This document shows, piece after piece, positions 7,377 to 54,000 of a stretch of DNA of 64,000 bases (position 1 is the first letter of the stretch; each line of letters opens with the position of its first letter). The DNA comes from Filomicrobium sp. Its GTDB lineage: Bacteria > Pseudomonadota > Alphaproteobacteria > Rhizobiales > Hyphomicrobiaceae. The position numbers and the translations under genes are program-made. A model generated the notes under the pieces. The model was not told the origin of the DNA, did no database searches, and saw only the letters and a program-made list of their open reading frames with translations. Location: contig CP051234.1 of NCBI GenBank assembly GCA_017792465.1, positions 1,428,606-1,492,605 of the forward strand, in the 5' to 3' direction.

Positions 7377-7706
7377 TGGGGCTCTTCAGTGGCGCCTTCA
7401 GATGCCCACTAGGCATCCGGCGCCGGACAATTCTCCGGCAGCTCTTATTAGTTGGCGCTTCGGATGCCCACCGCTACGCGGCATCCGCGCCATGACAACC
7501 AGCCCTCAATGGGTCCGAAGGGCCAGGGAGCAAGGCGACCCAGCGCTAGCCCAACACCGGCTTGCCGAGTGTTGGTGAAAAGCGCCGCCCGTCCATGCGA
7601 AGCATGGCTCCGCCATGACCGGAGTGGCCTGCGCGTCGCGCGGAACAGCCACGTGAGACACTTTAGTTGGCCCTTCGGTTGCCCACACGGCAACCGGGCC
7701 GAGTGA
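7377..7706. repeat. Composite palindromic repeat region 1
   Basis: No gene is present. Three type-B hairpins are visible at 7391-7424, 7454-7491 and 7669-7700. They have the form GGCSC-TTC-GGNTGCC ... GGCANCC-GSGCC, usually followed by ATGACA. One type-A hairpin (7551-7575) is preceded by the shared module GGGAGCAAGGCGACCC (from about 7527). A small GGTCC-GAA-GGGCC hairpin lies near 7513. The same modules recur at 32921-33345, 48427-48545 and 53580-54000. Confidence 0.8.
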
Positions 7707-8288
7707 TCAACCCTGCCAATGGGTGACGATATCTTCGAGGGCTGGGCGGTCGCGATCAGTCTGTCGCTCGGCTGCCGTTCCGATATAGATGAAGCCGGCG
7801 ATGCGTTCACCCGGCTGGAGGCCAAGTCCGGCGCTCACGGTCGGCGAAAACGCGATCCATTCGGTAATCCAACAGGTGCCAAACCCCATAGCGTTGGCGG
7901 CCAGACACAGGTTGAAGGCCGCAGCACCGGTCGAAAGCAACTGCTCGATTTCCGGCACACCCGGTTTCTCGATCATGCGGCTGACAACGGCGATGACCAG
8001 CGGCGCCCGCAGAAAGCGCGTCCTTTCCGTTTGCAGACGAACTTCGGAGGGTTCCCTGTCGTCCTCGGCGACACAGGCCTTGGCGAACAGCTCGCCGGCT
8101 TTGGCGCGCGCGGGACCTGAAAAGACGATAAATCGCCACGGAGTGAGTTTTTTATGGTCTGGAACGCGCGAGGCGATCGTTAAAATCTCGGTGAGTTCAG
8201 CGTCAGTCGGCCCTGGTGTGGTAAACATCGTGGGCTTCAGTGAACGACGGCTTTTCAGGAGTTCGAGCGTCGTAAGGCTTGTTGTCAT
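7707..8288 (-). CDS. Nitroreductase family protein
   Basis: A 193-residue FMN-dependent nitroreductase-fold protein of the YdjA-like type. Family features include the N-terminal LLKSRRSLKP (phosphate/flavin binding), ASRVPDHKKLTPWRFIVF, the central helix EQLLSTGAAAFNLCLAANAMGFGTCWITEW, and the C-terminal GFIYIGTA. The family reduces nitro compounds, quinones or related acceptors with NAD(P)H; the substrate here is unknown. It is divergent from the VWA gene at 8491, and its 3' end abuts the repeat region. Confidence 0.88.
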   Translation of the reverse strand: MTTSLTTLELLKSRRSLKPTMFTTPGPTDAELTEILTIASRVPDHKKLTPWRFIVFSGPARAKAGELFAKACVAEDDREPSEVRLQTERTRFLRAPLVIAVVSRMIEKPGVPEIEQLLSTGAAAFNLCLAANAMGFGTCWITEWIAFSPTVSAGLGLQPGERIAGFIYIGTAAERQTDRDRPALEDIVTHWQG

Positions 8289-8490
8289 GGGTTCCGTGTC
8301 GGTCGGGATGGCTTTGATACCAGCTTCGGTCTATGGCATGGACGATAATGCTGTCGCGCGAACTGATCGCGGTCAAGAACATTGCCCTGCGGTTCTTTTG
8401 CGCGCACGTCAGCGAAACGGGCAATTTAAAATGGTTCAATGCGCGAATAACGCGATGACAAAAGACAATAACGCGCCGGGAGGTTTGCAG

Positions 8491-10503
8491 GTGGAACCGC
8501 TGGAACCATTCTGTCGGGCAGGCTGGATTGCCCGGATGCTGACGGTAGCTCTGATGGCTTTTCTGGGCTGGCTCGCCATTACACCGGCCTCGGCGCAGGA
8601 AGCTGGCGGGTCTGTTGTCGTTGTTTTCGATAGTTCAGGGTCGATGTGGGGCAACGTCCCTGGAGGTCCGCCGAAATTCGAAGCCGCGCATTCCGCTTTG
8701 ACGAAAGCTTTTCCGGCAGCTGATGCCAAGATCCGTACCGGCCTGATGATCTTCGGTCCCGGCTGCTCGCGGGTCGATGTTGCAGCCACTCCTGCAATTC
8801 GCAGCGGCGCGGAGACGCTGGCCGCGCTTGGCTCCCTCAACCCGAAAAGCAAGGGACCGATCGCAGACGCTCTGCAACAAAGCCTCGCCATGTTCGAGCC
8901 CGGCCAACCCGGCAGTATCGTTCTGGTTGCTGATGGTCCGGACAACTGCCGCGGCGATCCGTGCTCTGTCGCCGCCGATATTGCTCAGTCGCGGCCAGAG
9001 CTCAAAATTCATACCATTGGGCTGGGAATGGATCAGCCCGACCCGACTCTGGCTTGCGTATCGCAAGCAACTGATGGGCGTTTTTTCACGGCCGGGACGA
9101 TGCAGGATCTCGATGCGGCGGCGACCCAGGCGCTGGACCTCGCCATGAACGACATGCGGCTGCCAAAGAAAAAGGAACTGTCGCAAAAGACCAAGCCCGG
9201 CAAAATCGCGCGGCCGCAATATGATCCTGATGGGCCGCCTCAGTTGGTCTTGAGCGCTGCGCTCGGTAAATCTGCAAAGAAGGATGAGCAGCTCGACAAG
9301 CCCGTCCGCTGGCGCGTCTATCAAACAGACAGCGAACCGGCAACCGAGGCCGTACCAATGCTCGACGTCCTCGAACCCAGTTTCGCGGTTCCTCTGGCGA
9401 CCGGAAGTTATTGGGTCGACGCGTCTTTGGGCCGGGCCCGTTTGGGTGGCCGGGTGGACATCGGTGAGAAGGGCCCGACGTTCTTCAAGGCGAATTTCGA
9501 TGCCGGCCTGCTGAAGGTCAATCTCGATGGCGGGGCGACTGGCGGACATCAAGAGGTTCCCGCGATCGTGACAGTCGAGAAGCCCGGCAAAGGCGGTGAT
9601 GGGGGCGCGGAAGCACCCGTCGTCATCAGTCCTTACCGCAGTTCTGAACTGGTCCTGCCGGTCGGGCAATATGAGGTGCGCGCGGAGAGCGGACCGATTG
9701 TTGTCAGCAAGGCGGTGACAATCCAATCCGGCAAGACTGCGGACTTGGATTTGCGGCTTCACACCGGTCAACTTTCACTTGTTGCGCAGACCGGACTTGG
9801 CGCGGCGGCGGCGAAGCAGTTGCAATACACGGTTTCGGTCGATGATCCGGACAGTCCAGGCGGTCGACGGATTGTGGCGCGCTCGGCGGCCGAACGCCCG
9901 GTTTTCGAACTACCGGCCGGCACTTACTATACGGAAGCCAAAGTCGGTTTTGCCCAGGCCAACAACCGTGTCGCTTTGGGTTCAGGCAAATCGTTGTCGC
10001 AGGCATTGACGGTGGAGGCTGCCCGCATCCGGGTGAAGGCCAACATCCCGCCAGATCAAAGACGCCGGCCGCGGCCTGTCGTTTATAAACTCTACACGCT
10101 CGAACCGCTTGCCGTCTTGGCGCGAAGCAGTGGCAAGGCGCCTGAGTTTGTCGTTGCGCCGGGCCGTTACCGCGTGGTTGCCGATATCGGTTCGCGCAAT
10201 GTGCGCAGCGTCCAGGATGTTTTGGTCGCAGCCGGCGACGATGCCGATATCACACTTACCGTTGCAGCGGGCGATGTAAAACTGCGCGTTTCCGACAAGG
10301 ATGGTAAGCCTCTTACGGGACAGTTCTGGGAAGTTGTCGACGACAGTGGCGCACCCGTCTGGCGCACGCAGCGGCTCGTCCCGCATGCCTTGTTGGCGCC
10401 TGGGCGTTACCGTGTCAGATGCGAAACGCGTAGCGGTCTCGTCCAAGGCGAGTTCAACGTTGCCGCCGGGGATGCGAAAACAGTCGAACTGCGCGTTCAA
10501 TGA
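8491..10503 (+). CDS. Secreted VWA-domain protein with repeated beta-sandwich modules
   Basis: The GTG at 8491 was chosen because GGGAGG lies seven bases upstream and a signal peptide follows directly (MLTVALMAFLGWLAITPASA). Longer in-frame starts would overlap the nitroreductase gene. The 670-residue product has a VWA domain right after the signal peptide, with an intact metal site (FDSSGSMWG) and LVADGPDNC. About four repeated modules follow, each ending in a PxGxY turn (LPVGQYEVRAESG, LPAGTYYTEAKVG, VAPGRYRVVADIG, LAPGRYRVRCETRSG). The next gene has the same modules without the VWA domain. A periplasmic or surface role in protein interaction is plausible; no specific function is known. Confidence 0.8.
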   Translation: MEPLEPFCRAGWIARMLTVALMAFLGWLAITPASAQEAGGSVVVVFDSSGSMWGNVPGGPPKFEAAHSALTKAFPAADAKIRTGLMIFGPGCSRVDVAATPAIRSGAETLAALGSLNPKSKGPIADALQQSLAMFEPGQPGSIVLVADGPDNCRGDPCSVAADIAQSRPELKIHTIGLGMDQPDPTLACVSQATDGRFFTAGTMQDLDAAATQALDLAMNDMRLPKKKELSQKTKPGKIARPQYDPDGPPQLVLSAALGKSAKKDEQLDKPVRWRVYQTDSEPATEAVPMLDVLEPSFAVPLATGSYWVDASLGRARLGGRVDIGEKGPTFFKANFDAGLLKVNLDGGATGGHQEVPAIVTVEKPGKGGDGGAEAPVVISPYRSSELVLPVGQYEVRAESGPIVVSKAVTIQSGKTADLDLRLHTGQLSLVAQTGLGAAAAKQLQYTVSVDDPDSPGGRRIVARSAAERPVFELPAGTYYTEAKVGFAQANNRVALGSGKSLSQALTVEAARIRVKANIPPDQRRRPRPVVYKLYTLEPLAVLARSSGKAPEFVVAPGRYRVVADIGSRNVRSVQDVLVAAGDDADITLTVAAGDVKLRVSDKDGKPLTGQFWEVVDDSGAPVWRTQRLVPHALLAPGRYRVRCETRSGLVQGEFNVAAGDAKTVELRVQ

Positions 10504-10525
10504 CAATCAAGCAGGTCAATTGCCG

Positions 10526-11566
10526 ATGAAAAAGTGTTGGCGATTTAACATATTGGGCGTGGCGCTACGCTTGTTGCGTTTGGGCGCATTCGGTTTCGCG
10601 TGCGTGATCATGGCGACCGCGTCGGCGCCAGCCAACGCACAATCGGATGCCAATCCTGCTAACCCGCAAGAGTGGGCTCCGGGTGTTTCGGTGTCGCCAT
10701 CGGATGGCTGGGCGGCGCAAAGCCAGCCTGCTGATAGCGACGGCTCACAACCGCAGGGTAGTGAGGCTATCGATAAAGCGCGTGAAGCCTTGAAGCCGAC
10801 GGTATCGGGGCCGGGCCTGGAAATCGTCGCCAAGCTGACGGATGACGACAGGACGATTACGTCCGATCTGATCTGGCGGATCTATTCGGGCGGCTCCTCA
10901 GCTGATGGCGCGCCGAAAATGCTGTCCAAGCATAAGAACAGCAGGCTCGAGGTGCCACTCGACCCTGGTCAGTATCTGGTGAATGTCACCTATGGCCGGG
11001 CCCACCTGACAAAGCGCATCAAGGTCAATGCCGGCCCCATCACGCGCGATGTCTTCGTGCTCAACGCCGGCGGTTTGCGATTGACGGCCTATGCGGGCGA
11101 AAAGCAGGTTCCCAAAGAAACGGTGCTGTTCGATATCTACGAAGCAGAAACCGACCAGTCGGGCCAGCGCCGGCTTGTCATTGGCAACCTGCGCCCGGAT
11201 GTCATCCTCAGGCTCAACGCCGGCATCTATTACATCAAGTCGGTTTATGGCGATGCCAATGCCAGCGTCGAATCCGAAGTCTCGGTGGAAGCGGGAAAAC
11301 TCACCGAAATCGCCATGGCTCATGCGGCGGCGACCGTGACGTTCGCCCTCGTCAACCGGCCCGGTGGGGATGCGTTGCCGGCAACGCGGTGGACCATCTC
11401 TACGCCGGAGGGGGACGTCGTGACGCGAAGCGTCGGCGCTTTGCCGACGCATATTCTGGCGCCGGGCAAGTACCGTGCGACGGCGCAAAACAGCGGCAAG
11501 GAATTTGTTCGCGAGTTCAGCGTCGAAGATAACCAGAAAGCGCGGATCGAGGTCGTCGTGCAATGA
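10526..11566 (+). CDS. Secreted repeat protein related to the C-terminal half of the upstream VWA protein
   Basis: The start is the ATG at 10526, 22 bases after the upstream stop, followed by a basic region and signal peptide (LGAFGFACVIMATASAPANA). The 346-residue protein contains three modules of the same type as the upstream protein: LDPGQYLVNVTYG, LNAGIYYIKSVYG and LAPGKYRATAQNSG. It therefore looks like a partial duplicate lacking the VWA domain. The spacing suggests an operon of two. Function unknown; a shared periplasmic complex is an inference. Confidence 0.75.
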   Translation: MKKCWRFNILGVALRLLRLGAFGFACVIMATASAPANAQSDANPANPQEWAPGVSVSPSDGWAAQSQPADSDGSQPQGSEAIDKAREALKPTVSGPGLEIVAKLTDDDRTITSDLIWRIYSGGSSADGAPKMLSKHKNSRLEVPLDPGQYLVNVTYGRAHLTKRIKVNAGPITRDVFVLNAGGLRLTAYAGEKQVPKETVLFDIYEAETDQSGQRRLVIGNLRPDVILRLNAGIYYIKSVYGDANASVESEVSVEAGKLTEIAMAHAAATVTFALVNRPGGDALPATRWTISTPEGDVVTRSVGALPTHILAPGKYRATAQNSGKEFVREFSVEDNQKARIEVVVQ

Positions 11567-11655
11567 GGCGCTGCGGGACACCGGCTAGGTATTGTGGATC
11601 AAGGTATTGATGGCGACTTGCTCGGTTGTTTGGCTCGGGCTCGCGCATCGCCGAA

Positions 11656-12339
11656 TTAGAAATCGGTCAGCACCCAGTCGGTCGGGCAGCCGTTCCCCAA
11701 CATGCGCTTTTCGCAGACTTCGGCGTCGCTTGCGCTGGAGGTTTCTTCAAAGAGCGAACGGGCCATCTGCCAGTGCTCGCAAGCGGTGATCAGATCGCCT
11801 TCGCTCTTGCAGATATCTCCCAGCTCCAATCTCGCCAGGGCATGAAGCGGCTTGTCGCCGGCCGACGTCGCCAGCATGATCGTCTTGCGCAAGCAATCTG
11901 CTGCAGTCGGGTCATTGCCGTTCTCACGATGGGCGACGGCTTCATCAAAATTCTGTCGCGCCTCGGCGATGCGGGGATCGAGTGCCTCTGACGGCGTCGG
12001 CCCTAGTTCGCTATCCAAAAACGACGCAGGCGGCGGAGGCTGAACCGGCATCTTGCCAGGTGCTGTCTGGGTGCCGTTGCCGCCGTTGGCCGCGGACGAT
12101 GATCCAGGGCGCCAGACCGGAGCGCCTGTCGGTGGCGACGGCTGCTGGCGCGGAGCTTCCTTTTGTCTTGGTGGAGGTTCTTTATTTCGATCGGGAGGGC
12201 GGTGTGGGGCTTGGTGCGGTGCTGAAGTTACAAGTCCCGGCCAAAACAAGGCCCACATCAGAGCTGAGGCGAGCAGCAGAACCGGGGCTGCAAGCAAGAG
12301 CATCCCTGTCGTACCGCCGATATCAAAAACCGGAATCAT
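11656..12339 (-). CDS. Membrane-anchored protein with proline-rich linker and TPR-like C-terminus
   Basis: A 227-residue protein with an N-terminal transmembrane helix (about residues 12-34), a Pro/Gln/Ala-rich linker (about 40-110) and a helical C-terminal region. That region includes ARQNFDEAVAHRENGNDPTAADCLRKTIMLA and ALARLELGDICKSEGDLITACEHWQMAR, two TPR-like helical pairs with alanines and leucines at repeat positions. It converges on the VWA/repeat operon. No family name is recognised; TPR-like domains usually bind partner proteins. Confidence 0.65.
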   Translation of the reverse strand: MIPVFDIGGTTGMLLLAAPVLLLASALMWALFWPGLVTSAPHQAPHRPPDRNKEPPPRQKEAPRQQPSPPTGAPVWRPGSSSAANGGNGTQTAPGKMPVQPPPPASFLDSELGPTPSEALDPRIAEARQNFDEAVAHRENGNDPTAADCLRKTIMLATSAGDKPLHALARLELGDICKSEGDLITACEHWQMARSLFEETSSASDAEVCEKRMLGNGCPTDWVLTDF

Positions 12340-12689
12340 GTCACCTCAGATCTTCGTTGCTCTTCGGCCTTTTGATTCATCGACCGTTATGGCGGCAACG
12401 TCCATTTCGCAATCTACATGACGAAACTATTTTAGTTGGCGTGACACTTTGGCGTCGCACCAGACGACTTTCGGGTGAATTCGTAAAAGGCAAATTTTGC
12501 CAATCTTTGGAGCTTCTTTGGCAGGTTTGTGCGATGTGTTATCGGTCTAGGCTAGGTAATCGCCGGACGGCTGCTTTGAACCAGGGCAATGCGCCTTTGA
12601 TTTCGGCAAAGCGGCACGTTTGGCGCTGACTTATGGTGCCTCATCTTGGGTGTCGCCGCCCATATCTCAACTTATCGGAGAGCTGATTA
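12340..12689. other. Intergenic region upstream of metC
   Basis: About 350 bases without a supported gene. A small hairpin (GGCAA-ATT-TTGCC, near 12470) is visible. I compared the region by eye with SAM-type riboswitch consensus elements and do not see one. It should contain the promoters of the minus-strand gene and of metC. Confidence 0.4.
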
Positions 12690-13874
12690 ATGGCAGATGG
12701 GACTTCGAAGCCCGGATCGCAGGGTAAGGCCAGTCTAGTGACGCATGGCGGACGCGACCCGTTCAGCGCCCATGGTTTCGTCAATACGCCGGTCTACCGC
12801 GGCTCAACGGTGCTGTACCCGACGCTCGAAAAGCTCAAGGCCAACGATCAGAAATATAGCTACGGGCGCAATACCAACCCGACGACGGATGCACTTTGCG
12901 AAGCCATCCGGCTGTTGGAGGGCGGGGCCTATACGGTGCTTGCCACATCCGGTTTGCATGCGGTGACGACGGCCATTCTCGCATTCGTCGAAGCGGGCGA
13001 CGAAATCCTGATGACGGACAGCGTCTATTTTCCAACGCGCCGGTTTTGCGAACAGGTGCTGCGGCGGATGGGCGTCAATACGATCTATTACGATCCCTTG
13101 ATCGGAGGCGGCATCGCCGACCTCATCACCGACAAGACGCGGTTCGTTTTCACCGAGAGTCCTGGTTCGCAGACTTTCGAAATGCAGGACATTCCTGCCA
13201 TCGTTGCCGCCGCCAAGGCGCGCGATCTTTGGGTGTTGATGGACAACACCTGGGCGACGCCGATTTACTTCGATGCGCTTGGGCATGGTGTCGATGTCTC
13301 GATCCAAGCTGCCACCAAGTACATCGTTGGGCATGCCGACGCGATGCTCGGAGCGATCACGACGAACGACCGCGCTGCCCCGCTTTTGAAACGAGCATCA
13401 ATCGCGCTTGGCAATGCGGCCGGGTCGGAAGAGACCTTCCTCGGGTTACGCGGTTTGAGGACGTTGGAGGTCCGCCTTACACGGCATCAGGCTTCGGGCA
13501 TTGAAATCGCCGAGTGGCTAAAGGGGCGGCCGGAGGTCAGCGAAGTGATCCATCCAGCTCTCCCGGGCACGCCCGGCCATGACATCTGGAAGCGCGATTT
13601 CACAGGTGCGTCGGGACTGTTCTCGATTGTGCTGAAGCCGGTCTCGCAGCAAGCATTAGGCGCGATGCTCGATGATCTGAAGTATTTCGGCATGGGCTTT
13701 TCGTGGGGCGGTTACGAGAGCCTGATCGTGCCGTTTGAATGCGCGAAAACGCGGACGGCGACGACCTGGAAGCGCGAAGGACCGGCGCTTCGGCTGCACA
13801 TCGGGCTGGAAGACGTCGCCGACCTCAAAGCAGATTTGGCGGAAGGCTTTGAGCGGATGAATTCTGTTGACTAG
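12690..13874 (+). CDS. metC: Cystathionine beta-lyase
   Basis: A PLP-dependent Cys/Met-metabolism enzyme of 394 residues, full length for the family. It cleaves cystathionine to homocysteine, pyruvate and ammonia in methionine synthesis. Visible landmarks are VNTPVYRGSTVLYPT, the substrate/PLP region YGRNTNPTTDAL, ATSGLHAVTTAI, LMDNTWATP (PLP-interacting Asp) and the PLP lysine in AATKYIVGH. The C-terminal FGMGFSWGGYESL is typical of MetC rather than gamma-synthases. Starts at ATG after an AT-rich leader (GGAGAGCTGATTA). Cytoplasmic; probably monocistronic. Confidence 0.93.
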   Translation: MADGTSKPGSQGKASLVTHGGRDPFSAHGFVNTPVYRGSTVLYPTLEKLKANDQKYSYGRNTNPTTDALCEAIRLLEGGAYTVLATSGLHAVTTAILAFVEAGDEILMTDSVYFPTRRFCEQVLRRMGVNTIYYDPLIGGGIADLITDKTRFVFTESPGSQTFEMQDIPAIVAAAKARDLWVLMDNTWATPIYFDALGHGVDVSIQAATKYIVGHADAMLGAITTNDRAAPLLKRASIALGNAAGSEETFLGLRGLRTLEVRLTRHQASGIEIAEWLKGRPEVSEVIHPALPGTPGHDIWKRDFTGASGLFSIVLKPVSQQALGAMLDDLKYFGMGFSWGGYESLIVPFECAKTRTATTWKREGPALRLHIGLEDVADLKADLAEGFERMNSVD

Positions 13875-14000
13875 GATGGGGCCGCTACTGCCATAAGCAA
13901 GAACAAGGAAAAATGGAAACGCTCTGCGGCTGCTGTTCGCGATAGCAGAGAGTAGGGTCGGCTGGGTCATCCGCGATGGGCCGCGAAAGCAAGGACGAAT

Positions 14001-15038
14001 TTGTTGGGCCGTTTGATAAATTTTCTGATCAATCTCAAAGCCATGCCGGGACGGATCGAGGCCTTGGCGCGCCTTCCGGCTAGGATCACCAATCTGGAAA
14101 AGAGAATCGAGCGTCTGAATGGTCAGGGCGCTCTTGCCGGCGAGGCCGGTCGTGCCGCGCCTTCAACGGAAAGCGGCGCCGCTCAAGCCGCGCCAGCAGC
14201 GATCGACGCATCAGGCCGTGCCGCACCGGGCGCAACCAACACCCCGTCGACTGCCGAAGTCGAGGCCGCCAAAACGGCCTTTAATGACTATCTCGCGACG
14301 CTGCTTAACCGGCCCGTGGCAAATCAAACCTATACGTGCCGCTGCTGTGGCAACGACATCGATCTCAGTTCGCGCAAGCCGTTGGATGCCACATGCTTTA
14401 TCAGCGGCCTGACCTTGCGCCGATATGACTGTCCTCACTGCTCAGTCGTGTTCGGCCCGGTGCAGTTGATCGAGTGCAGTGCCGAGGAACTCGGCCGGGT
14501 CTATGAGCTGCTCTACGGTTTCCTGCATGAAGGTGACAGCCGGATCGGCCAGGAGAAGGCGTTCTATTGCGCCAACCCCGGGTTCAGCGAACGGATCTTG
14601 AATTATGCCTGCGGCGACTGGGACAAGGGTCTCGCGAACCTGCGCGAGATCGGCTGGAACGTCGAGGGATATGAACCGTTCCAGACGAACTCATCACCGC
14701 ATATCTATGCTCGTCGCGAAGACGTGCCTCAGAAGGCCTACGACGTGTTGTTCAGTCACAACTACCTCGAACACGTCCAGGACCCGATCGCGTTCTTCAC
14801 TGAATGCCAGGACTACATCCGACCGGGCGGACGGATGGCGCACTCGACGCCGTGTTATGCGTACGTTTTCGAGCAGTCTCCGCTACACCTGCATTTTGTT
14901 CTGCCTGATACCGTCAATGCATTGGCCGAAAAAACCGGCTTTACGGTGAGCGGGCACTTCGCGTCCGACCTCGACAGCGAGCACACCAACATTCATTTTC
15001 AGTGCTACGTTTACGAGCCGAAGGCCACTGGGGTTTAG
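14001..15038 (+). CDS. Class I SAM-dependent methyltransferase-fold protein with zinc-ribbon-like segment
   Basis: The TTG at 14001 (or 14004) follows AAGGA; an ATG at 14043 is the alternative. The N-terminus is helical, followed by an Ala/Pro-rich linker (about residues 45-95). Residues ~108-145 carry two Cys pairs (CRCC ... CPHC) suggesting a zinc site. The remainder is a methyltransferase-like domain, with LNYACGDWDKG as a degenerate glycine motif, EGYEPF as the acidic strand end, YDVLFSHNYLEHVQDP as the later motif, and YIRPGG. The glycine-rich SAM motif is poor, so activity is uncertain. Such proteins often act in polysaccharide or nucleotide-sugar modification; the target here is unknown. 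Confidence 0.7.
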   Translation: MLGRLINFLINLKAMPGRIEALARLPARITNLEKRIERLNGQGALAGEAGRAAPSTESGAAQAAPAAIDASGRAAPGATNTPSTAEVEAAKTAFNDYLATLLNRPVANQTYTCRCCGNDIDLSSRKPLDATCFISGLTLRRYDCPHCSVVFGPVQLIECSAEELGRVYELLYGFLHEGDSRIGQEKAFYCANPGFSERILNYACGDWDKGLANLREIGWNVEGYEPFQTNSSPHIYARREDVPQKAYDVLFSHNYLEHVQDPIAFFTECQDYIRPGGRMAHSTPCYAYVFEQSPLHLHFVLPDTVNALAEKTGFTVSGHFASDLDSEHTNIHFQCYVYEPKATGV

Positions 15039-16701: not shown

Positions 16702-16778
16702 TGGCGACCCCGGCACGACTCGAACGTGCGACCTGGAGATTAGAAGTCACCTGCTCTATCCAGCTGAGCTACGGGGCC
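16702..16778 (-). tRNA. tRNA-Arg (anticodon UCU)
   Basis: A 77-nt cloverleaf including an encoded CCA tail. The acceptor GGCCCCG pairs with CGGGGTC (one G-U); the D arm is GCTC/GAGC; the anticodon loop CTTCTAA gives UCU; the T arm is GCACG-TTCGAGT-CGTGC. The anticodon stem GGTGA/TCTCC has one T-T mismatch in the middle. Confidence 0.95.
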
Positions 16779-17356: not shown

Positions 17357-17433
17357 TGGTCGGGGCGCGGGGATTCGAACTCCGGACCCCCTGCTCCCAA
17401 AGCAGGTGCTCTACCAGGCTGAGCTACGCCCCG
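17357..17433 (-). tRNA. tRNA-Pro (anticodon UGG)
   Basis: A 77-nt cloverleaf with encoded CCA. Acceptor CGGGGCG pairs with CGCCCCG; the anticodon stem CCTGC/GCAGG is perfect, with loop TTTGGGA giving UGG; the T arm contains TTCGAAT. It is on the same strand as the tRNA-Arg 600 bases away, separated by the NDUFS4-like gene. Confidence 0.96.
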
Positions 17434-32912: not shown

Positions 32913-32920
32913 TCGGTGGG

Positions 32921-33345
32921 CCCTTCGTTCGTCAACACTGCGCAAGCTTGTGTTGAGCAGGGATGCCCACGCTTCGGCTTCGCCTCGCGCATCCGCGCCC
33001 TGACAATTCTCCGCAGCCCAGCATCTTTGCCGCAACCGGGCTATGACAACCAGCAATTATCGGTCCGAAGGACCGGGGAGCAAGGCGACCCAGCGCTTGG
33101 CCAACACCGGCTTGCCGAGTGTTGGCACAGAATGCGCCGCCCGTCGGAGCGGCCCGCGCTCAGTGTGGATGCGGGTGGGCATCAGAAACATCACTTAAGA
33201 GCGCGGATCAGCCGCGTGAGACATAAGAATGGCGCTTCGGATGCCCACCAATTTTTTGAGCCAACACTTCCTAAAGTCGTGTTGGGCTGGGCATCCGGCG
33301 CAGGAAAGTTCTTCCGTCGCGGTGGAGAGTGAGGCTGCCACTTTG
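32921..33345. repeat. Composite palindromic repeat region 2
   Basis: No gene is present. Type-A hairpins lie at 32931-32956, 33101-33125 (preceded by GGGGAGCAAGGCGACC) and 33261-33285. A GGTCC-GAA-GGACC hairpin lies near 33062. The copy at 33261 sits inside the loop of a type-B element whose arms are GGATGCC (33239-33245) and GGCATCC (33290-33296), so the two repeat types are nested. Confidence 0.8.
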
Positions 33346-46996: not shown

Positions 46997-48396
46997 CCGG
47001 CCATCTCGCCGAAGATCGATTGCGCGGATTGCTCGCGGGACTGAGCCTGCCGGAGGGCAGTTTCGAGGTGCGCAACATCGGCATCAAGGTCGCCGCCTTG
47101 ATGACCGAGAAGATCCTGAAGAACCGTCTCGATGCACCGATTGAAGCGGACCGTGTGATCCTGCCGGGGCGCGTGCGGATGGATCTCGATGCGCTTGGCA
47201 AACATTTCGAGGTGCCATTTCAGCTGGGGCCGGAAGAGATCATCGACCTTCCGCAGTTTCTCGGTCACGGCGGACGGCCGCCCGACTTGAGCCAATACGA
47301 CATCAACATCTTTGCCGAAATCGTCGAAGCCCCCGAGGTGCCGCTTGATGCACTCGTCGCGCGAGCGCTACAGCATCGCGAGGCGGGGGCAGACGTCATC
47401 GACATCGGCTGCCGGCCCGACGTTCCGTTTCCTCATCTGGAAGACGCGGTGCGGGCGATCAAGGCGCAGGGGCTGAAGGTCAGCGTCGATTCCGGCGACA
47501 TGGATGAGTTGCGGCGCGGCGCGCAAGCGGGTGCAGACTTTGTCCTGAGCCTTGATGAAGACCATCTCGATGTCGTCGCTGGTACGGATTGCGTGCCGGT
47601 CCTCGTCCCAAAAGAGCATGGCGATTTGGACTCACTGGTCCGCGCGATCGAGAAAGCGAAAGCTGCCGGTCTCGCGCACATGGCCGACCCCATTCTCGAT
47701 CCGATCCATTTCGGCTTTATGGCGTCGCTGGAACGTTATGCGGAGCTGCGTCGGCGTTGCCCGGATGTCGAAATCCTGATGGGAACTGGCAACCTCACCG
47801 AACTCACCGAAGCCGACAGCCAGGGTCTGACGGCGATGCTGCTTGGCATCTGTTCGGAGCTTCGCATTCGCAACGTGCTCATCGTGCAGGTTTCGCCGCA
47901 CACGCGCCGGACGGTCGAGGAGCATGACGCGGCGCGGCGAGTGATGTTTCGCGCACGCGAAGACAACGCCTTGCCGAAGGGTTATGGCGGCGGGCTGTTG
48001 TCATTGCACGAGTTGCGCCCCTTCCCGTTAGCGCCGGACGAAATCAAAGACGCCGCTGGAGAAATCCGCGATGCCAACTTCCGCATCCAGTCGAGCGTCG
48101 ATGGCGTGCACATCTATAACCGCTTCGGCTATCACACGGCCCTCGATCCGTTCGATCTCTATCCCAAGCTCGGCGTCGACGATGATGCGGCGCACGCGTT
48201 CTATCTCGGGTTTGAGCTTGCCAAGGCGCAAATCGCGCATAAGCTTGGCAAGCGTTACACGCAGGACCGGCCGCTTCGTTGGGGCGTCGCTGCGGATGCC
48301 CCTGATGAAGCCATGACGCACCATGCTCCCGAAGGCGTGACATTGCGCGCCGCACGGGAGAAGGCCCAGCGCGAGGCGCCCAAGAAAGACGAGTGA
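46972..48396 (+). CDS. DUF6513 / dihydropteroate-synthase-like protein of the H4MPT cluster
   Basis: A 474-residue cytoplasmic protein. The first ~120 residues (LLFLTGHLAEDRLRGLLAGL ...) form a domain specific to this family. The middle (about 130-330) is a TIM barrel like dihydropteroate synthase: HREAGADVIDIGCRP, GLKVSVDSGDMDELRRGAQAGADFVLSL (split: SVDSGD is the pterin motif) and LMGTGNLTELTEADS. It is one of the conserved unassigned H4MPT-synthesis proteins and a good candidate for joining the pterin to the ribofuranosyl-benzene unit. Its start lies inside dmrB. Confidence 0.88.
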   Translation: MSEKLLFLTGHLAEDRLRGLLAGLSLPEGSFEVRNIGIKVAALMTEKILKNRLDAPIEADRVILPGRVRMDLDALGKHFEVPFQLGPEEIIDLPQFLGHGGRPPDLSQYDINIFAEIVEAPEVPLDALVARALQHREAGADVIDIGCRPDVPFPHLEDAVRAIKAQGLKVSVDSGDMDELRRGAQAGADFVLSLDEDHLDVVAGTDCVPVLVPKEHGDLDSLVRAIEKAKAAGLAHMADPILDPIHFGFMASLERYAELRRRCPDVEILMGTGNLTELTEADSQGLTAMLLGICSELRIRNVLIVQVSPHTRRTVEEHDAARRVMFRAREDNALPKGYGGGLLSLHELRPFPLAPDEIKDAAGEIRDANFRIQSSVDGVHIYNRFGYHTALDPFDLYPKLGVDDDAAHAFYLGFELAKAQIAHKLGKRYTQDRPLRWGVAADAPDEAMTHHAPEGVTLRAAREKAQREAPKKDE

Positions 48397-48426
48397 GCGC
48401 GACGCTGGTGGCGCGATTTATTGCGC

Positions 48427-48545
48427 TCACGGCTGATCCTCCCCCGGATCAATCCGGGGTCGGGCCTCCGCGGGGGCGCCGCATATTTCCCAACACTCGG
48501 CAAGCCGGTGTTGGGCGGCGGGTCGCCTTGCTCCCCGGCTTTGCT
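48427..48545. repeat. Composite palindromic repeat region 3
   Basis: One type-A hairpin (48490-48514; CCAACAC/GTGTTGG, centre TCGGCAAGCCG) is followed by GGGTCGCCTTGCTCCC, the same module as at ~7527 and ~33077 but in the opposite direction. GATCCTCCCCCGGATCAATCCGGGG-type palindromic sequence precedes it. This splits the cofactor operon between the DUF6513 and DUF447 genes. Confidence 0.7.
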
Positions 48546-48616
48546 GGCAAAGCCGAATGCGCAATCTGTTTTTGGCAACGGAAGAAACAACAAGAACAAA
48601 ATTTTGGGAGACGCCC

Positions 48617-49183
48617 ATGCCGCTCATCATTGAAACGATCGTCACGACGCGTTCGCGAAGCGGTGAAATTCACATCGCGCCGCTGGGGCTTATCCAGCGT
48701 GGCGACAAGTGGATCATCGCGCCGTTCACGCCGTCGAAAACGCTCGACAACCTCCAGGAAAACCCGTGCGCCGTCGCCAACCATGTCGACGACGTACGCA
48801 TCTTCGCGGGTTGCGTCACAGGCCGCAAGAAGTGGCCGTTCAATCGCGCCGAGAAGGTCGACGGGGCGGTATTGAAAGCGGCGATGTCGCATTGGGAATT
48901 GAAGGTCGAGAGTATGGAAGACGATGACGTGCGCCCGCGCTTCATCTGCCGCTCGGTCTTCACCCGCGGGCACAAGCCGTGGGGCGGGTTCAACCGCGCG
49001 CAGGCGGCTGTTCTAGAGGCGGCCGTGCTCGTCACGCGGCTCAAGATGCTGCCGAAAGAGAAGGTCGAAAGCGAGCTGGAATATCTGCAGATCGCGATTT
49101 CCAAAACGGCCGGCGACCGCGAACTGGAAGCCTGGGGCTGGCTGATGGAAAAGGTCCAGGCTTGGCGGGGGGAGCAGGGGTAG
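48617..49183 (+). CDS. DUF447 flavin-binding-like protein of the H4MPT cluster
   Basis: A 188-residue protein starting at ATG 48617 with GGGAG six bases upstream. The N-terminal beta-barrel half (IIETIVTTRSRSGEIHIAPLG, KWIIAPFTPSKTLDNLQENPCAVANHVDDVRIFA, both typical of a split-barrel flavin fold) is followed by a helical C-terminus (NRAQAAVLEAAVLVTRLKML). DUF447 proteins are found with H4MPT genes in archaea and methylotrophs; their step is unknown. A 220-base repeat-bearing gap separates it from the previous gene, so it may be transcribed apart. Confidence 0.87.
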   Translation: MPLIIETIVTTRSRSGEIHIAPLGLIQRGDKWIIAPFTPSKTLDNLQENPCAVANHVDDVRIFAGCVTGRKKWPFNRAEKVDGAVLKAAMSHWELKVESMEDDDVRPRFICRSVFTRGHKPWGGFNRAQAAVLEAAVLVTRLKMLPKEKVESELEYLQIAISKTAGDRELEAWGWLMEKVQAWRGEQG

Positions 49184-49515
49184 GGTGAGGTGTCCGTTGC
49201 CCTAGGTCCGCGACATTTCAAATCCGCTTTTCGCGCGAGGACCGGATTGCTGGAGGATAGCCACGCTTTGAGAACCCCATATACGTGGACAGATCCCGTC
49301 CTTCGCCGGGATGACGAAGTGTTGGTGGCTGGGTCTGACGTCGAAGATAGATAGGTTGCCCGACTGGCATCGCGTTGCCGTACCTCGCATCGGCGCGGGG
49401 ATGACGGGTGGCGTGTGGGGCCAGTGGTCAGGTCGGGTCGGCCCATGAATCGAACGTCAGCGGGACGCATACACATTTGAACCCGTTGGCTCAACACCGA
49501 GTTTCCCCTCTGACG
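49184..49515. repeat. Region with partial type-E palindromes upstream of the nuclease 3' end
   Basis: No gene is seen. It contains degraded copies of the TCATCCCCGCG palindrome: GATCCCG-TCCTT-CGCCGGGATGAC at about 49285-49312 and CGCGGGGATGACGGGTGG at about 49395-49412. The latter shares downstream sequence (TGTGGGGC) with the copy at 49935. Confidence 0.65.
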
Positions 49516-49546
49516 TCATCCCCGCGAAGGCGGGGATCCGGGATGG
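49511..49546. repeat. Type-E palindrome, left copy, forming the end of the GIY-YIG gene
   Basis: ATCCCCGC-GAAG-GCGGGGAT (49518-49537) is a perfect 8-bp hairpin flanked by TGACGTC on the left and CCGGG on the right. Read on the minus strand it encodes the last ~10 residues and the stop codon of the nuclease. Confidence 0.85.
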
Positions 49547-49896
49547 TTTCCGGGACGCTCAGGCTCACCTTCTAGGCTTTCCGCCTCAAACGGGCCGAAC
49601 TCGATCTCGCCGGTTTCCGGATCGAACAGGTTCTTCCACTCGGGATTCATCTGTTCGATGAGGCGGTACTTCCATGCGCGATTCCACCGCTTCAAACGCT
49701 TCTCGCGCAGGATGGCTGTGGGCATATCCAGATGCGTCTCGTAATAGACCAGCATCTTGATGCCGTGCTGCTTGGTGAAGCCTTCGATCAGACCTTGATC
49801 ATGCTGCGCCATGCGCGCGTGCAGGTCGCTCGTCACTCCGACATAGAGCGTGCCGTAAGGCTTCGAGGCCAGGATGTAGACGCATGGGACTTTCAT
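49516..49896 (-). CDS. GIY-YIG nuclease-family protein flanked by inverted palindromes
   Basis: A 126-residue single-domain GIY-YIG endonuclease-fold protein. The catalytic motif reads VYILAS ... TLYVGVT (YI and YVG), followed by the Arg in SDLHARMAQHDQG and the Glu-bearing TAILREKRLKRWNR. The family (COG2827 type) is widespread and mostly uncharacterised. The start at 49896 excludes 28 upstream residues, which are translated palindrome (RHPPRRRGSIQ). The C-terminus (GNHPGSPPSRG) is also encoded by a palindrome, in inverted orientation relative to the one near the start. The gene with both palindromes therefore has the outline of a small mobile unit. Confidence 0.85.
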   Translation of the reverse strand: MKVPCVYILASKPYGTLYVGVTSDLHARMAQHDQGLIEGFTKQHGIKMLVYYETHLDMPTAILREKRLKRWNRAWKYRLIEQMNPEWKNLFDPETGEIEFGPFEAESLEGEPERPGNHPGSPPSRG

Positions 49897-49934
49897 CGAG
49901 AGGAAGCGTAGGTGAGAAACAAGGGCTTGGATAG

Positions 49935-49968
49935 ATCCCCGCCTGCGCGGGGGATGACGGGTAGAGTG
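49935..49968. repeat. Type-E palindrome, right copy, upstream of the GIY-YIG gene
   Basis: ATCCCCGC-CTGC-GCGGGGGAT (49935-49955) with ATGACGGGTAGAGTGTGGGGC after it. It is oriented opposite to the copy at 49511, so the two face each other across the nuclease gene like terminal inverted repeats. Confidence 0.85.
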
Positions 49969-49994
49969 TGGGGCGAGCAAGATGGATTCAATTG

Positions 49995-50372
49995 TTAGCG
50001 GTGAGCTGACGATTTGCAGACCTCGATGAGTTGCCGGACGGTAATTGGTCTGTAGTCTTCTGGCTTACAAGTCGCATTCTTGTAGAGTGCATAAAATGGG
50101 AATAGTCCCAGCAGCGGTGCCCAAACTCCGCCCCAGAATTCCGGCGGAGATATTGGTCGGTCGTCCGAAGAAGTATTGAGTTTTGAAACGATTTCTATTC
50201 CTAACCGGTCTTCGATATCCCAGACCAGAGCGTCAATATCATCTCCCCAGAGCTTCAGGTCGTGGTAGATACGGGCGGCCTTGAGCTTTTCGTCAGTTGG
50301 GAACTTCTTCGCAATCGAGCGTGGCAGATTCTGTTTGACCACCTCAACAACTGCCTTTTCGACTTCGGTCAT
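49995..50372 (-). CDS. Small DUF1493-like (acyl-carrier-fold-like) protein
   Basis: A 125-residue protein whose central segment ARIYHDLKLWGDDIDALVWDIEDRLGI resembles DUF1493 proteins, which look like acyl-carrier folds in which the DSL serine motif is replaced (GDDID here). A hydrophobic patch (GVWAPLLGLFPFYALY) and ITVRQLIEVC follow. The DNA is visibly more AT-rich than the neighbours, suggesting recent acquisition. DUF1493 genes are of unknown function. Family assignment is moderate. Confidence 0.6.
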   Translation of the reverse strand: MTEVEKAVVEVVKQNLPRSIAKKFPTDEKLKAARIYHDLKLWGDDIDALVWDIEDRLGIEIVSKLNTSSDDRPISPPEFWGGVWAPLLGLFPFYALYKNATCKPEDYRPITVRQLIEVCKSSAHR

Positions 50373-50391
50373 GGCAGATGAGTCCCCCCCC

Positions 50392-50946
50392 TCACTCCTC
50401 CGGGGTTTTCATCTCCGTTGGCAGGTTCCATTCTTTCCAGCCGTCGGTTCCGTCGGGGTACCAGATGACGTTGGTGTAGCCCCACGACAGCGCGCGCTTG
50501 GCGGCGTTCCAGCTCATCCAGCATTGGCGCAGGCAGAAGAAGACCAGCGTTTTCGACTTATCCCCGCCGGTGTACTTCTCAAGCCCGGCGCGGAAGTACT
50601 TCTCGAACTCGGGGTTCAAGACGCCGTAGCCGACGTTCGGCAGCCAGATCGCGCCTTTGATGGTGTCGTGGCGGGGTGTGCGCCAGACGGTTGATTTGGG
50701 CAGGTTGGGCGGTTTCGGGGCCTGCGGGTAGACGTCGAAGAAGATCGCTTCTCCCTTTTTCGACAGCGCCTCAGCGACGTCCGTATCGATGACCCGGGCG
50801 CCCTGCAGCGTCTTCGGCACCGGCCCGCGGTAATGATCGTTGCGATAGCCCTCGGGTTCGGGGGCGTGTTCGACCTCCGCTGAGATTGCCGGCAATGCGA
50901 GCAAAACGGCGGCTACCAGTGCTGCCAGTATCGACTTGAGTTGCAT
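50392..50946 (-). CDS. PQQ-catabolism-associated CXXCW-motif protein
   Basis: A 184-residue exported protein (signal LAALVAAVLLALPAISA) with a rhodanese-like domain. Its diagnostic end is LVFFCLRQCWMSWNAAKRA, the Cys-Cys-Trp motif of the family named for PQQ-dependent catabolism, then YTNVIWYPDGTDGW. Members are periplasmic and occur near PQQ alcohol dehydrogenases and their ABC genes; here it stands 9 kb from that cluster. The two cysteines may be redox-active. Monocistronic or cotranscribed with the DUF1493-like gene 19 bases downstream. Confidence 0.88.
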   Translation of the reverse strand: MQLKSILAALVAAVLLALPAISAEVEHAPEPEGYRNDHYRGPVPKTLQGARVIDTDVAEALSKKGEAIFFDVYPQAPKPPNLPKSTVWRTPRHDTIKGAIWLPNVGYGVLNPEFEKYFRAGLEKYTGGDKSKTLVFFCLRQCWMSWNAAKRALSWGYTNVIWYPDGTDGWKEWNLPTEMKTPEE

Positions 50947-51123
50947 TTACTATCTTCTTTTTGGGCTTCCTCGTACATTTGCGTATACTAAAGCGGCCAG
51001 CCTTTGGCACGCATTTCGCCGTCTGGCTGCGTCACAACTGTTTGACTATTTGCAGATCTTTGGTTGCCGGTTAAGTTTGTTGCAGCACACAAACATTCTA
51101 TCGCCGCGAGGCCACATCGCCCC

Positions 51124-53283
51124 ATGACCCAAATCCCTGATTTCACGAAAATCGAGCTTGGCTCGGCAAGCGCTCCAGCCGTCAGCCCGGCCGCCGACGT
51201 TTGGACAACGCCAGAGGGGATCGACGTCAAGCCCGCCTACGGCGAAGCGGACCTCAAAGGCCTTGATTTCCTTGATACTTATCCGGGTATCCCGCCATTC
51301 CTGAGGGGGCCTTATCCCGCGATGTATGCGGCCCAGCCGTGGACGATCCGCCAGTATGCGGGCTTCTCGACGGCTGAAGAATCCAACGCCTTCTACCGCC
51401 GCAATATCGCGGCCGGGCAAAAGGGCCTGTCGGTGGCCTTCGATCTGGCGACCCACCGCGGCTACGATTCCGACCATCCGCGCGTCAAAGGCGATGTCGG
51501 GATGGCGGGCGTCGCGATCGATTCCATCTACGACATGCGCACGCTGTTTTCGGGCATCGACCTGTCACAGATGTCGGTGTCGATGACCATGAACGGCGCC
51601 GTGCTGCCGGTGCTGGCGCTTTTCATCGTGGCTGGTGAGGAGCAGGGCGTTTCGGCCGACAAGCTGTCGGGGACTATTCAGAACGACATCCTCAAAGAGT
51701 TCATGGTCCGCAACACGTACATCTACCCGCCCGAGCCTTCGATGCGGATCATTTCGGACATCTTCAGCTATACCAGCCAGAACATGCCGAAGTTCAACTC
51801 GATCTCGATTTCCGGCTACCACATGCAGGAAGCGGGCGCGACGGCGGACCTTGAGCTCGCCTATACGCTGGCTGACGGCATCCAGTATGCGCGCGCAGGG
51901 GTCGCCGCCGGGCTACCGATCGACCGCTTCGCGCCGCGCCTGTCGTTCTTCTGGGCGATCGGCATGAACTTCTTCATGGAAGTCGCGAAGATGCGGGCAG
52001 CGCGCATTCTCTGGGCAAAGATGGTCAAGGAAGAGTTCGCGCCTGAAAATGAGCGTTCGCTGTCGCTTCGTACCCACTCGCAAACGTCGGGCTGGTCGCT
52101 CACCGCGCAGGACGTCTTCAACAACGTGATCCGCACGGCGATCGAGGCGATGGCGGCAACGCAAGGCCATACGCAATCGCTGCACACCAACGGGCTCGAC
52201 GAAGCGATCGCACTACCGACCGACTTCTCGGCGCGTATCGCGCGCAACACGCAGCTCTTCCTGCAGCAGGAATCGGGCATCTGCCGGATTGCCGATCCGT
52301 GGGGCGGTTCGGCTTATGTCGAGCGGCTGACGCACGATCTGGCCGCGCGCGCCATGGGCCACATCGAGGAAGCCGAGAACCTTGGCGGCATGGCCAAGGC
52401 GATTGCCGCCGGCGTTCCCAAAATGCGTATCGAAGAAGCCGCGGCACGGACGCAGGCGCGCATCGATTCCGGTCAGCAGACCATCGTCGGCGTCAACAAG
52501 TACAAGGTCGAAAACGACGCCATCATCGAGCTTTTGAAGGTCGACAATAATTCGGTTCGCTCGCAGCAGATCGAGAAGCTGAAACGGCTCCGCGCCGAGC
52601 GCAACGAGGCCGAGACGCAGGCCGCCCTTGAAGCCCTGACCAAGGGCGCGGAAGGCAAAGCCAACCTCTTGGAGCTTGCCGTGGAGGCGGCACGCAAAAT
52701 GGCGACCGTCGGCGAGATCTCGGATGCCATGGAAAAGGTTTTCACCCGGCACCGTGCGGAAATCCGCGCGATCTCCGGTGTCTACAAAGCGGAGGCGCAG
52801 TCTGTGAACAAGGATATCGACCGTGTGTTGCAGATGGTGGATACGTTCGAGGCCAACGACGGGCGGCGTCCGCGTATCCTGATCGCCAAGATGGGTCAGG
52901 ACGGACACGACCGCGGGCAGAAGGTGATCGCATCGGCGTTTGCCGATCTGGGCTTCGACGTTGATATCGGGGCATTGTTTGCAACGCCGGAAGAGGCTGC
53001 GCGCCAGGCGGTCGAGAACGACGTGCATATCGTCGGCGTGTCGTCGCTGGCGGCCGGCCACCTGACGCTGGTGCCGGAACTTCGCGAAGCGCTTGAAGCG
53101 CAGGGTCGCGGCGACATCATGATCGTCGTCGGCGGTGTTATCCCACCGGCCGATTACGACGCGCTCTTCAAGGCCGGCGCCAAGGCTGTGTTCGGTCCGG
53201 GCACCAACATTCCGGAAGCCGCCGCCGACCTGATCGCCAAGCTCAACAGCATGCTGGGCTATTCGAAAGAAGCAGCGGAGTAA
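51124..53283 (+). CDS. mcmA: Methylmalonyl-CoA mutase, large (catalytic plus B12-binding) subunit
   Basis: A 719-residue B12-dependent mutase interconverting methylmalonyl-CoA and succinyl-CoA, full length with both domains. The catalytic barrel shows [29 protein letters not shown] (split by the [11 protein letters not shown]-like motif), [15 protein letters not shown] and [12 protein letters not shown]. The C-terminal domain carries the cobalamin motif DGHDRG (His is the cobalt ligand) with [16 protein letters not shown] and [10 protein letters not shown]. In serine-cycle methylotrophs it works in the ethylmalonyl-CoA route of glyoxylate regeneration. Start at ATG 51124; meaB lies 5.5 kb downstream. 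No cobalamin riboswitch is seen upstream. Confidence 0.96.
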
Positions 53284-53334
53284 CTGCTCGGGACGATGCC
53301 CAAGGGTTTGGGAGATGAGTTTGGGCAGGGCTTC

Positions 53335-53577
53335 ATGCAGCGTGTTTTGATCACGGCTGGCTGCCTGTTGATGCTGGCTTGGTTGGCGCTAACGGGTTCC
53401 GGCAAAGGCATCGTTGTCTGGCAATCGAAGCCTTACGTCGCCCAGGGTCATAGCCGTCCGGCGATCCGCTGCACCTATTTCGATGGGACGCGTATTTTCG
53501 AACGCGGGTTTCTCTATACGCCCGGCGGCGGGCTTGGCTATTCGCGCTGCCCGATCCTGGCGGAAGAAATGTTCTAG
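53335..53577 (+). CDS. Small membrane-anchored hypothetical protein
   Basis: An 80-residue product: an N-terminal hydrophobic helix (VLITAGCLLMLAWLALTG) then a short periplasmic domain with two Cys (AIRCTYFDGTRIFERGF ... SRCPILAEE). ATG 53335 was chosen at the start of the helix; an ATG at 53296 would add 13 residues. It resembles small YobH-like proteins in size and layout, but that is weak. It follows mcmA closely and may be cotranscribed. Confidence 0.55.
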   Translation: MQRVLITAGCLLMLAWLALTGSGKGIVVWQSKPYVAQGHSRPAIRCTYFDGTRIFERGFLYTPGGGLGYSRCPILAEEMF

Positions 53578-53579
53578 GC

Positions 53580-54000
53580 GCCTTCTTTCGTCAACACGGC
53601 GCAAGCTTGTGTTGAGCTTGGATGCCCTAGTTTTTTGCTTGGCCCTTCGGATGCCCACATAGCATCCGGGCCATGACATTCTTCTTTGGCGCTTCGGTTG
53701 CCTAGTGCCAACCGCGCCATGGCATTCTTCTTTGGCGCGCCAGATGCCCACAGCTCAGTTGGTTTGGCTCACACTTCCTAAAGTCGTGTGAGGCTGTTCG
53801 CGCAACCGGCGCATGACTTCTTAGTTGACCCTTCGGATGCCCAGTGCCAACCGGGCCATGACATTTTTTGGGCCCTTCGGGTGCCGACCAGCACCCGGGC
53901 CGTGACAACCAGCCAAGACTGTCGTCTCGGAACGGCAACGACTTTGCAGAGAATTGTACGGCGCCGGTTGCGCGAGGCGAAGCCGAAGCGTGGGCAACCG
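53580..54000. repeat. Composite palindromic repeat region 4
   Basis: No gene. Type-A hairpins are at 53590-53615 (GTCAACAC/GTGTTGA) and 53768-53792 (CTCACAC/GTGTGAG). Type-B hairpins are at 53641-53672 (GGATGC/GCATCC), 53688-53718 (GGTTG/CAACC), about 53827-53858 (mixed arms) and 53871-53901 (GGGTGC/GCACCC). A degraded type-B element surrounds the second type-A copy. It is the densest such region in the window. Confidence 0.85.

What the first reader, a model, noticed from the sequence alone, without database searches (positions are those of the whole stretch)
7391..53901. Type-B hairpin repeats with compensatory changes in both stem arms
At least six intergenic copies share the plan GGCSC-TTC-GGNTGC...GCANCC-GSGCC-ATGACA. 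The inner stem occurs as GGATGC/GCATCC (7454-7491, 53641-53672), GGTTGC/GCAACC (7669-7700; shortened form at 53688-53718) and GGGTGC/GCACCC (53871-53901). The outer stem occurs as GGCGC/GCGCC (7454, 53688) and GGCCC/GGGCC (7669, 53641, 53871). Both arms change together while the TTC bulge and ATGACA tail stay fixed. This paired variation is expected if the folded form (RNA or cruciform DNA) is what is selected or copied, and I know of no named family with this plan.
Basis: partly seen in the sequence, partly recalled or inferred. Interest (0 to 1): 0.7.

Follow-up and report, generated by a model that had tools for sequence, protein, structure and literature searches.

The report
Hairpin repeats locked to replication direction
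Tiny DNA hairpins scattered between genes of this Hyphomicrobium-like bacterium belong to a REP-like repeat family whose copies nearly all point the same way relative to chromosome copying, which suggests they spread at the replication fork, although no enzyme that would move them was found.

Summary
The hairpins are real and their arms covary, but six copies are the tip of a family: 85 copies at E<=1e-5 in the own genome, matches in 41 of 103 genomes of the taxonomic family, and many in one genome of another family (G090). Conserved plan: T-run, stem, TTC bulge, inner stem, mostly CCCAC/CCGAC loop. The ATGACA tail is not fixed. The striking property was not in the finding: 81 of 85 own copies lie on one strand. 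A prediction noted before fetching, that strand follows GC skew, held for 38 of 40 contigs of two congeners (36 of 37 and 2 of 3), and inside genes read the opposite way in 34 of 34 stretches. Outside the genus the skew link was not significant (37 of 63), though orientation is contig-coherent in two of three genomes. Hairpins sit inside one another, form tandem arrays, and are missing from an orthologous gap in four congeners. Ten of 13 hairpin-rich genomes show no Y1 transposase. Best reading: REP-like single-strand mobile hairpins inserting at the fork; mover unknown. New variant of a known kind.

The parts
7391..7424 (+). X hairpin, outer stem GGCGCC/GGCGCC, TTC bulge
7454..7491 (+). X hairpin GGCGC-TTC-GGATGC...GCATCC-GCGCC, tail ATGACA
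   Evidence: DNA fold
7500..7660 (+). composite linker between two X copies (GGGAGCAAGGCGACCC near 7526 ... CACGTGAGACA near 7649), holding a W motif near 7553; the first motif is 15:1 and the second 14:1 on the + strand of the sampled own genome
7669..7700 (+). X hairpin GGCCC-TTC-GGTTGC...GCAACC-GGGCC, tail GAGTGA
   Evidence: DNA fold
32919..33008 (+). X hairpin with a Z hairpin (core at 32934) set in at its bulge; ends approximate
33231..33301 (+). X hairpin whose loop holds a Y hairpin (core near 33265)
53577..53626 (+). X left arm GGCGCC-TTC, Z hairpin (core 53593-53613), then GGATGCC: Z set in at the X bulge
53641..53672 (+). X hairpin GGCCC/GGGCC, inner GGATGC/GCATCC, tail ATGACA
   Evidence: DNA fold
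53688..53718 (+). X hairpin, shortened inner stem GGTTG/CAACC, tail ATGGCA
53734..53812 (+). degenerate X whose loop holds a Y hairpin (CACTTCCTAAAGTCGTG near 53772)
53827..53857 (+). X hairpin with unmatched arms (GGATG / CAACC), perhaps a recombinant
53871..53901 (+). X hairpin GGCCC/GGGCC, inner GGGTGC/GCACCC, loop CCGAC
   Evidence: DNA fold
53960..54008 (-). X hairpin on the minus strand (GGCGCC...GGCGCC), one of 4 minus copies among 85
53577..54070 (.). hairpin array filling a gap between convergent genes; the orthologous gap is short and, by eye, without these hairpins in G001, G002, G005 and G006, holds nested Y/Z/W hairpins and one X in G003, and about 1.4 kb of other sequence in G008

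Best explanation
The hairpins ('X') are a REP-like mobile repeat. The unit is about 45 nt: a T-run, two bases, two mostly-T positions, then an imperfect hairpin whose TTC bulge, inner-stem core and CCCAC/CCGAC loop are largely fixed while the outer stem and one inner pair vary in a compensated way. It spreads as folded single-stranded DNA, most likely in the lagging-strand template at the replication fork, and inserts, apparently without target duplication, also into the loops and bulges of hairpins already there. That would leave copies with the same face on the leading (G-rich) strand. Shown here: structure and covariation, copy number, nesting, absence from an orthologous gap in four congeners, orientation following GC skew in the genus, and no Y1 transposase match in most carriers. 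Inferred: that insertion, not later selection, makes the orientation; that the lagging-strand template is the target; and that an unidentified enzyme does it.
Against: No mover found: PF01797 (Y1) gives no match in the own genome or in 10 of 13 hairpin-rich genomes; Y2 and reverse transcriptase are not common to the carriers tested. Outside the genus the skew test fails: 37 of 63 named 8-kb loci, p=0.21, and 27 of 47 in opposite-strand genes; stretches of G027 agree in 6 of 10 and of G020 in 4 of 5 by my reading; in G090 skew differs with p=0.029 raw and 0.059 gene-corrected. Only 3 of 21 G008 contigs were tested (2 agree), and one untested G008 contig has hits on both strands. AT skew does not follow (24 of 40). 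Contig coherence is not significant in G020 (p=0.11). W motifs are 6:4. No insertion was seen at base resolution against an empty allele of the same species. Both DNA strands fold about equally well. Several interrupted copies lack the host's right half, which template switching would explain as well.
Confidence: 0.55

Rival explanations
1. No transposase: the repeats spread by replication slippage and template switching at hairpins, the nascent strand jumping between copies; strand asymmetry of the fork gives the orientation.
For: Half hairpins followed directly by full ones, tandem arrays and a copy with unmatched arms (53827-53857); none of the three mover families tested is common to the carriers.
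Against: Does not easily explain dispersal to 33 separate clusters in the own genome, the T-run, bulge and loop kept across two taxonomic families, or clean insertion of one hairpin type into another.
Confidence: 0.22
2. Copies insert either way, but those in the wrong orientation are lost because X has a polar chromosome function (like KOPS, Chi or a fork-related site; comparison recalled).
For: Orientation follows GC skew strongly in the genus and is coherent over contigs of G090; a fixed core is conserved.
Against: Y and Z, with other sequences, show the same bias, so several motif families would need the same polar function, though they often lie in or beside X; two congeners have no matches at E<=0.1 (G005, G007); nested and broken copies are frequent.
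Confidence: 0.12
3. They act as RNA: 3'-end stabilisers, terminators or small RNAs, kept in the sense orientation of the upstream gene.
For: 22 of 29 own clusters lie downstream of a gene on the same strand against about 43% of gaps; convergent gaps are enriched (12 of 29 vs 56 of 317). In G090 the 3' side of the hairpin is T-rich (79% T at +1, 72% and 65% at +3 and +4), so a terminator role there is not excluded.
Against: Strand is + in 5 of 6 gaps between two minus-strand genes and wholly or mostly + in all 12 convergent gaps; coding near hairpins in G003/G008 is not biased to their strand; in the own genome the T-run is upstream and no T-run follows directly, and the only terminator-like sites in 53500-54100 are a separate hairpin; no Rfam match at gathering score.
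Confidence: 0.08
4. The repeats are GTAG-type REPs moved by a RAYT (Y1) transposase, now lost from most carriers.
For: REP-like size, intergenic place, bulged hairpin with a fixed 5' flank; strand preference known for Y1 elements.
Against: No GTAG in the flank profiles; no Y1 match in 10 of 13 hairpin-rich genomes, and the Y1 frames in the other three are short (86 to 141 aa). Some of the 13 assemblies are incomplete (70-76% in two).
Confidence: 0.03

Closest known systems
CGTC-tagged REPs (Di Nocera et al. 2013, PMC3733652; abstract, sections 6, 8 and 15 read, passages of others)
   Same: Short palindromes between genes, mostly in Alphaproteobacteria, near 3' ends and in convergent gaps, no dedicated transposase; part of the X copies read TGTCA or CGTCA on the other strand, and TGTC is an accepted variant of that tag.
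   Different: X has an 11-bp stem split 5+6 by a 3-nt bulge, no leading AT pairs, a T-run flank, and same-direction arrays; CGTC REPs have 8-9 bp stems and mostly head-to-head dimers. CGTC-type motifs in the same genome do not share the strand bias (10:16; 8:20 in G003/G008).
GTAG REPs / REPINs with RAYT transposases (PMC3116915 and PMC6006769, passages seen)
   Same: Imperfect hairpin with a fixed flank, high copy, intergenic, tandem arrays; in P. [quoted passage not shown]
   Different: No GTAG, no inverted doublets as the rule, no Y1 match in most carriers.
IS200/IS605 family (IS608, ISDra2) single-strand transposition
   Same: Hairpin ends, single-strand movement preferring the lagging-strand template, orientation following replication (passages).
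   Different: X carries no gene and is a single hairpin of about 45 nt; no TnpA match in the own genome.
Integron attC sites (recalled, not tested)
   Same: Folded single strand with unpaired bases, recognised by structure, compensated stems.
   Different: X is dispersed and shorter; integrase not searched for.

Membership tests
REP-like repeats (broad sense) | 20-50 nt palindrome, many copies, between genes | tested here: met
   85 copies at E<=1e-5, 33 clusters; one of 29 examined clusters flagged inside an ORF
REP-like repeats (broad sense) | Preference for 3' ends and convergent gaps | tested here: met
   convergent 12 of 29 vs 56 of 317 gaps, p=0.005; divergent 2 of 29 vs 72 of 317, p=0.056; crude ORF calls
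CGTC REPs | Unpaired CGTC/TGTC/CCTC tag at one end | tested here: inconclusive
   [N]TGA[C/T] follows 22 of 59 own, 12 of 57 G003/G008, 1 of 29 G090 copies
CGTC REPs | 8-9 bp stem starting with AT pairs, 4-5 nt loop | tested here: not met
   5+6 bp with 3-nt bulge, starting mostly with G-C; definition from PMC3733652 section 6
CGTC REPs | Predominantly head-to-head dimers | tested here: not met
   23 of 25 own clusters with two or more copies are on one strand; same-direction arrays
GTAG REPs | GTAG tetranucleotide at the hairpin end | tested here: not met
   flank profiles show a T-run and no GTAG
GTAG REPs | Cognate RAYT (Y1, PF01797) gene | tested here: not met
   no match in the own genome nor in 10 of 13 hairpin-rich genomes
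IS200/IS605-type single-strand elements (as mechanism) | Orientation follows replication | tested here: met
   38 of 40 contigs in the genus by GC skew; not significant outside it (37 of 63)
IS200/IS605-type single-strand elements (as mechanism) | Insertion without target duplication | tested here: inconclusive
   no duplication seen by eye in nested copies, boundaries ambiguous by about one base
IS200/IS605-type single-strand elements (as mechanism) | Movement catalysed by a Y1 transposase | not testable with these tools
   needs an experiment; no candidate Y1 gene in the own genome
Integron attC | Integrase in the genome, sites in a cassette array | not tested
   integrase not searched; dispersed positions speak against an array

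The most novel reading that the evidence does not exclude
A class of minimal mobile hairpins (X, Y, Z, W: about 35-45 nt each, often led by a T-run) that replicate as folded single strands at the fork by an enzyme that is neither a Y1 nor a Y2 transposase nor a reverse transcriptase, or by host replication enzymes alone; they settle inside one another's loops and record the direction of replication over whole chromosomes.
Probability: 0.33. Interest if true: 0.82.

Novelty: new variant of a known kind. Interest (0 to 1): 0.6.

Why it matters
How REPs without a transposase spread is an open question (PMC3733652 states that CGTC REPs apparently lack one). A family with strand-locked orientation and nested insertions makes single-strand, fork-coupled spreading directly testable. 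If it holds, hairpin strand is also a simple marker of replication direction in fragmented genomes of this genus.

Tried and rejected
RAYT/Y1 mobilisation: no PF01797 match in the own genome or in 10 of 13 hairpin-rich genomes. Y2 (IS91-type) transposase: no match in the hairpin-rich G000, G004, G036, G054 and G090. Reverse transcriptase: present in all five hairpin-rich congeners tested and absent from the two hairpin-free ones tested, which looked promising, but absent from the hairpin-rich G027, G043, G053, G054 and G090. Known RNA family: nothing at gathering score in the window besides two tRNAs; the 11 and 5 weak matches are all below gathering score. Intrinsic terminator: the two terminator-like hits in 53500-54100 are one separate hairpin at 54019-54045 read on both strands (shuffles give 0.9). 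Transposase gene enclosed by hairpins: the ORFs near five close clusters that I printed read to me as ordinary genes (no family search was run on them). KOPS-like GGGNAGGG counts were 35:26 and gave no clear polarity. Literature searches.
Full report
What was checked. The five named hairpins and the sixth at 7391-7424 are present as described. The strict pattern GGCSCTTCGGNTGCC-N(4-20)-GCANCCGSGCC occurs 20 times in the own genome and its reversed control never. The window lies at 1428606-1492605 of a single 4.47-Mb contig.

Structure. From 37 copies chosen by a pattern that left the variable positions free I built alignment A1. With the bulged stem, 96.3% of cells pair (82.8% shuffled), the covariation score is 0.304 (0.068 shuffled, 0 of 500 as high), and sliding the partner by 1-3 columns drops pairing to 29-39%. 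Two-sided changes fall on four outer pairs and one inner pair (A-U 16, U-A 11, G-C 7); five pairs never vary. The count of pairs with two-sided change (5) is not beyond the shuffles (47 of 500 reach it). The same holds in G003 (68 distinct rows, score 0.356 vs 0.088) and in G090 of another family (80 rows, 0.241 vs 0.061), though those alignments were fitted to the model. The first inner pair is a mismatch in 22 of 68 G003 rows and 65 of 80 G090 rows. Both DNA strands fold nearly equally well in four copies tried. Flanks, for copies with an outer stem of 3 bp or more (59 of 77 own, 57 of 60 G003/G008, 29 of 37 G090): a T-run, 62-69% T at -8 to -5 in the own genome (40% at -9), 63-78% at -9 to -5 in G003/G008, 86-93% at -9 to -5 in G090; then two bases, then two positions of 58-84% T, then the stem. 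The 3' side is not conserved across families; in G090 it is T-rich.

Copy number and range. Model R1 gives 109 matches at E<=1 in the own genome (99 +, 10 -); a lower bound because 150 of 4046 candidates were scored. At E<=1e-5 there are 85, 81 + and 4 -, in 33 clusters: 30 all +, 1 all -, 2 mixed; 8 of the 33 hold one copy only. In the family 41 of 103 genomes and 12 of 25 genera match; among 99 relatives 45 match at E<=0.1. Outside the family G090 has 90 matches at E<=1e-5 and G096 three at E<=0.1. In 20 stretches of G090 chosen around hits there are 83 matches at E<=0.001.

Other hairpins. Y (CACTTCCTAAAGTC, with a stem that covaries by eye), Z (AACACNGCGCARGCTTGTGTT), W and a linker (GGGAGCAAGGCGACCC ... 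CGTGAGACA) accompany X. By eye Z sits at the X bulge in 8 of 12 own copies and in or beside Y in three; Y sits in X loops; in G003 W sits in Z, which sits in Y, three deep. Tandem arrays with 32- and 40-nt units occur in G027 and with 39-nt units in G003. The orthologue of the window gap 53577-54070 has 77-134 bp between the flanking alignments and, by eye, none of these hairpins in G001, G002, G005 and G006; G003 holds nested Y/Z/W hairpins and one X; G008 has about 1.4 kb of other sequence; G007 was not read there.

Limits of the strand result. Outside the genus, 74 named 8-kb loci (six loci of unrelated taxa dropped beforehand, about 21 further loci not used) split into 11 of 11 for G003 and 37 of 63 for the rest, p=0.21. 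Contig coherence against permuted labels: G090 p=0.0002, G027 p=0.017, G020 p=0.11, from the listed top hits only. In G090, with more hits, contigs are 1:16, 1:15, 14:0, 9:0, 10:0, 2:10, 4:0 and 0:1, total 41:42; skew is lower where hairpins are minus (p=0.029 raw, 0.059 gene-corrected). Local skew in those genomes may be too weak, or the rule may be weaker there.

Gene context. Of 29 own clusters with both neighbours held, 12 lie in convergent gaps (56 of 317 background gaps), 9 between two + genes, 6 between two - genes, 2 in divergent gaps. The upstream gene is co-oriented in 22 of 29. That fits REPs in general (PMC3733652, section 15). Gene calls were made by a simple ORF script.

Mover. 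PF01797 gives no match in the own genome and matches in 17 of 99 relatives. Of 13 genomes with at least 15 hairpin matches (G000, G002, G003, G004, G008, G020, G027, G036, G041, G043, G053, G054, G090) only G002, G003 and G043 have one; some of these assemblies are incomplete. Y2 and reverse transcriptase are not shared by all. Either the mover is of a family I did not test, or none exists.

Mechanism and comparison. IS200/IS605 elements fold as single strands, prefer the lagging-strand template and so take the orientation of replication (PMC5371812, PMC6006769; passages). X works like that in orientation and shape, but no such enzyme was found. It is not a CGTC REP by stem and dimer criteria and not a GTAG REP by tag and RAYT. 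In P. fluorescens some tandem REP arrays face opposite ways on the two sides of the genome (passage of PMC3116915), a hint of the same rule. The searches listed no paper that I recognised as describing replication-locked orientation of a dispersed REP-like family without transposase; I judged most of these by title and start of abstract, the library holds open-licence papers only, and Gomez et al. 2014 on transposon orientation was not held.

Verdict. Real, structurally constrained, REP-like, and more interesting for its orientation than for its covariation. I rate insertion of folded single strands at the fork most likely (0.55), template switching next (0.22).

Noticed in passing
G000 C1, whole contig (L021-L040, L216-L239, window): GC skew of the + strand is positive in 41 of 44 stretches spread around the single-contig chromosome and AT skew negative in 41 of 44, with no clear sign change, whereas G029 changes sign. 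Either a misjoined assembly, a large inversion, or one-directional replication.
   Followed up: partly
G000 C1:1025811-1026404 (-): A reverse-transcriptase domain in a frame of about 620 aa; frames of similar size (563-624 aa) occur in the four other hairpin-rich congeners and in neither hairpin-free congener tested.
   Followed up: partly
sampled G000 and G003/G008 stretches: CGTC-type REP motifs lean to the strand opposite to X: 10:16 and 8:20, together 18:36, p=0.02.
   Followed up: no
L180-L195: The X core pattern occurs in 16 stretches of IMG/VR viral contigs, perhaps prophages or host sequence binned as virus.
   Followed up: no
window 2605 (G000 1431210): A Z hairpin with an X-like left side and a Y-like right side, outside the coordinates of the finding.
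   Followed up: no
window 54013-54053: A GC-rich stem with T-runs on both strands, a bidirectional terminator-like site beside the array.
   Followed up: no
window 16705-16778 and 17360-17433 (-): Two tRNA genes.
   Followed up: no
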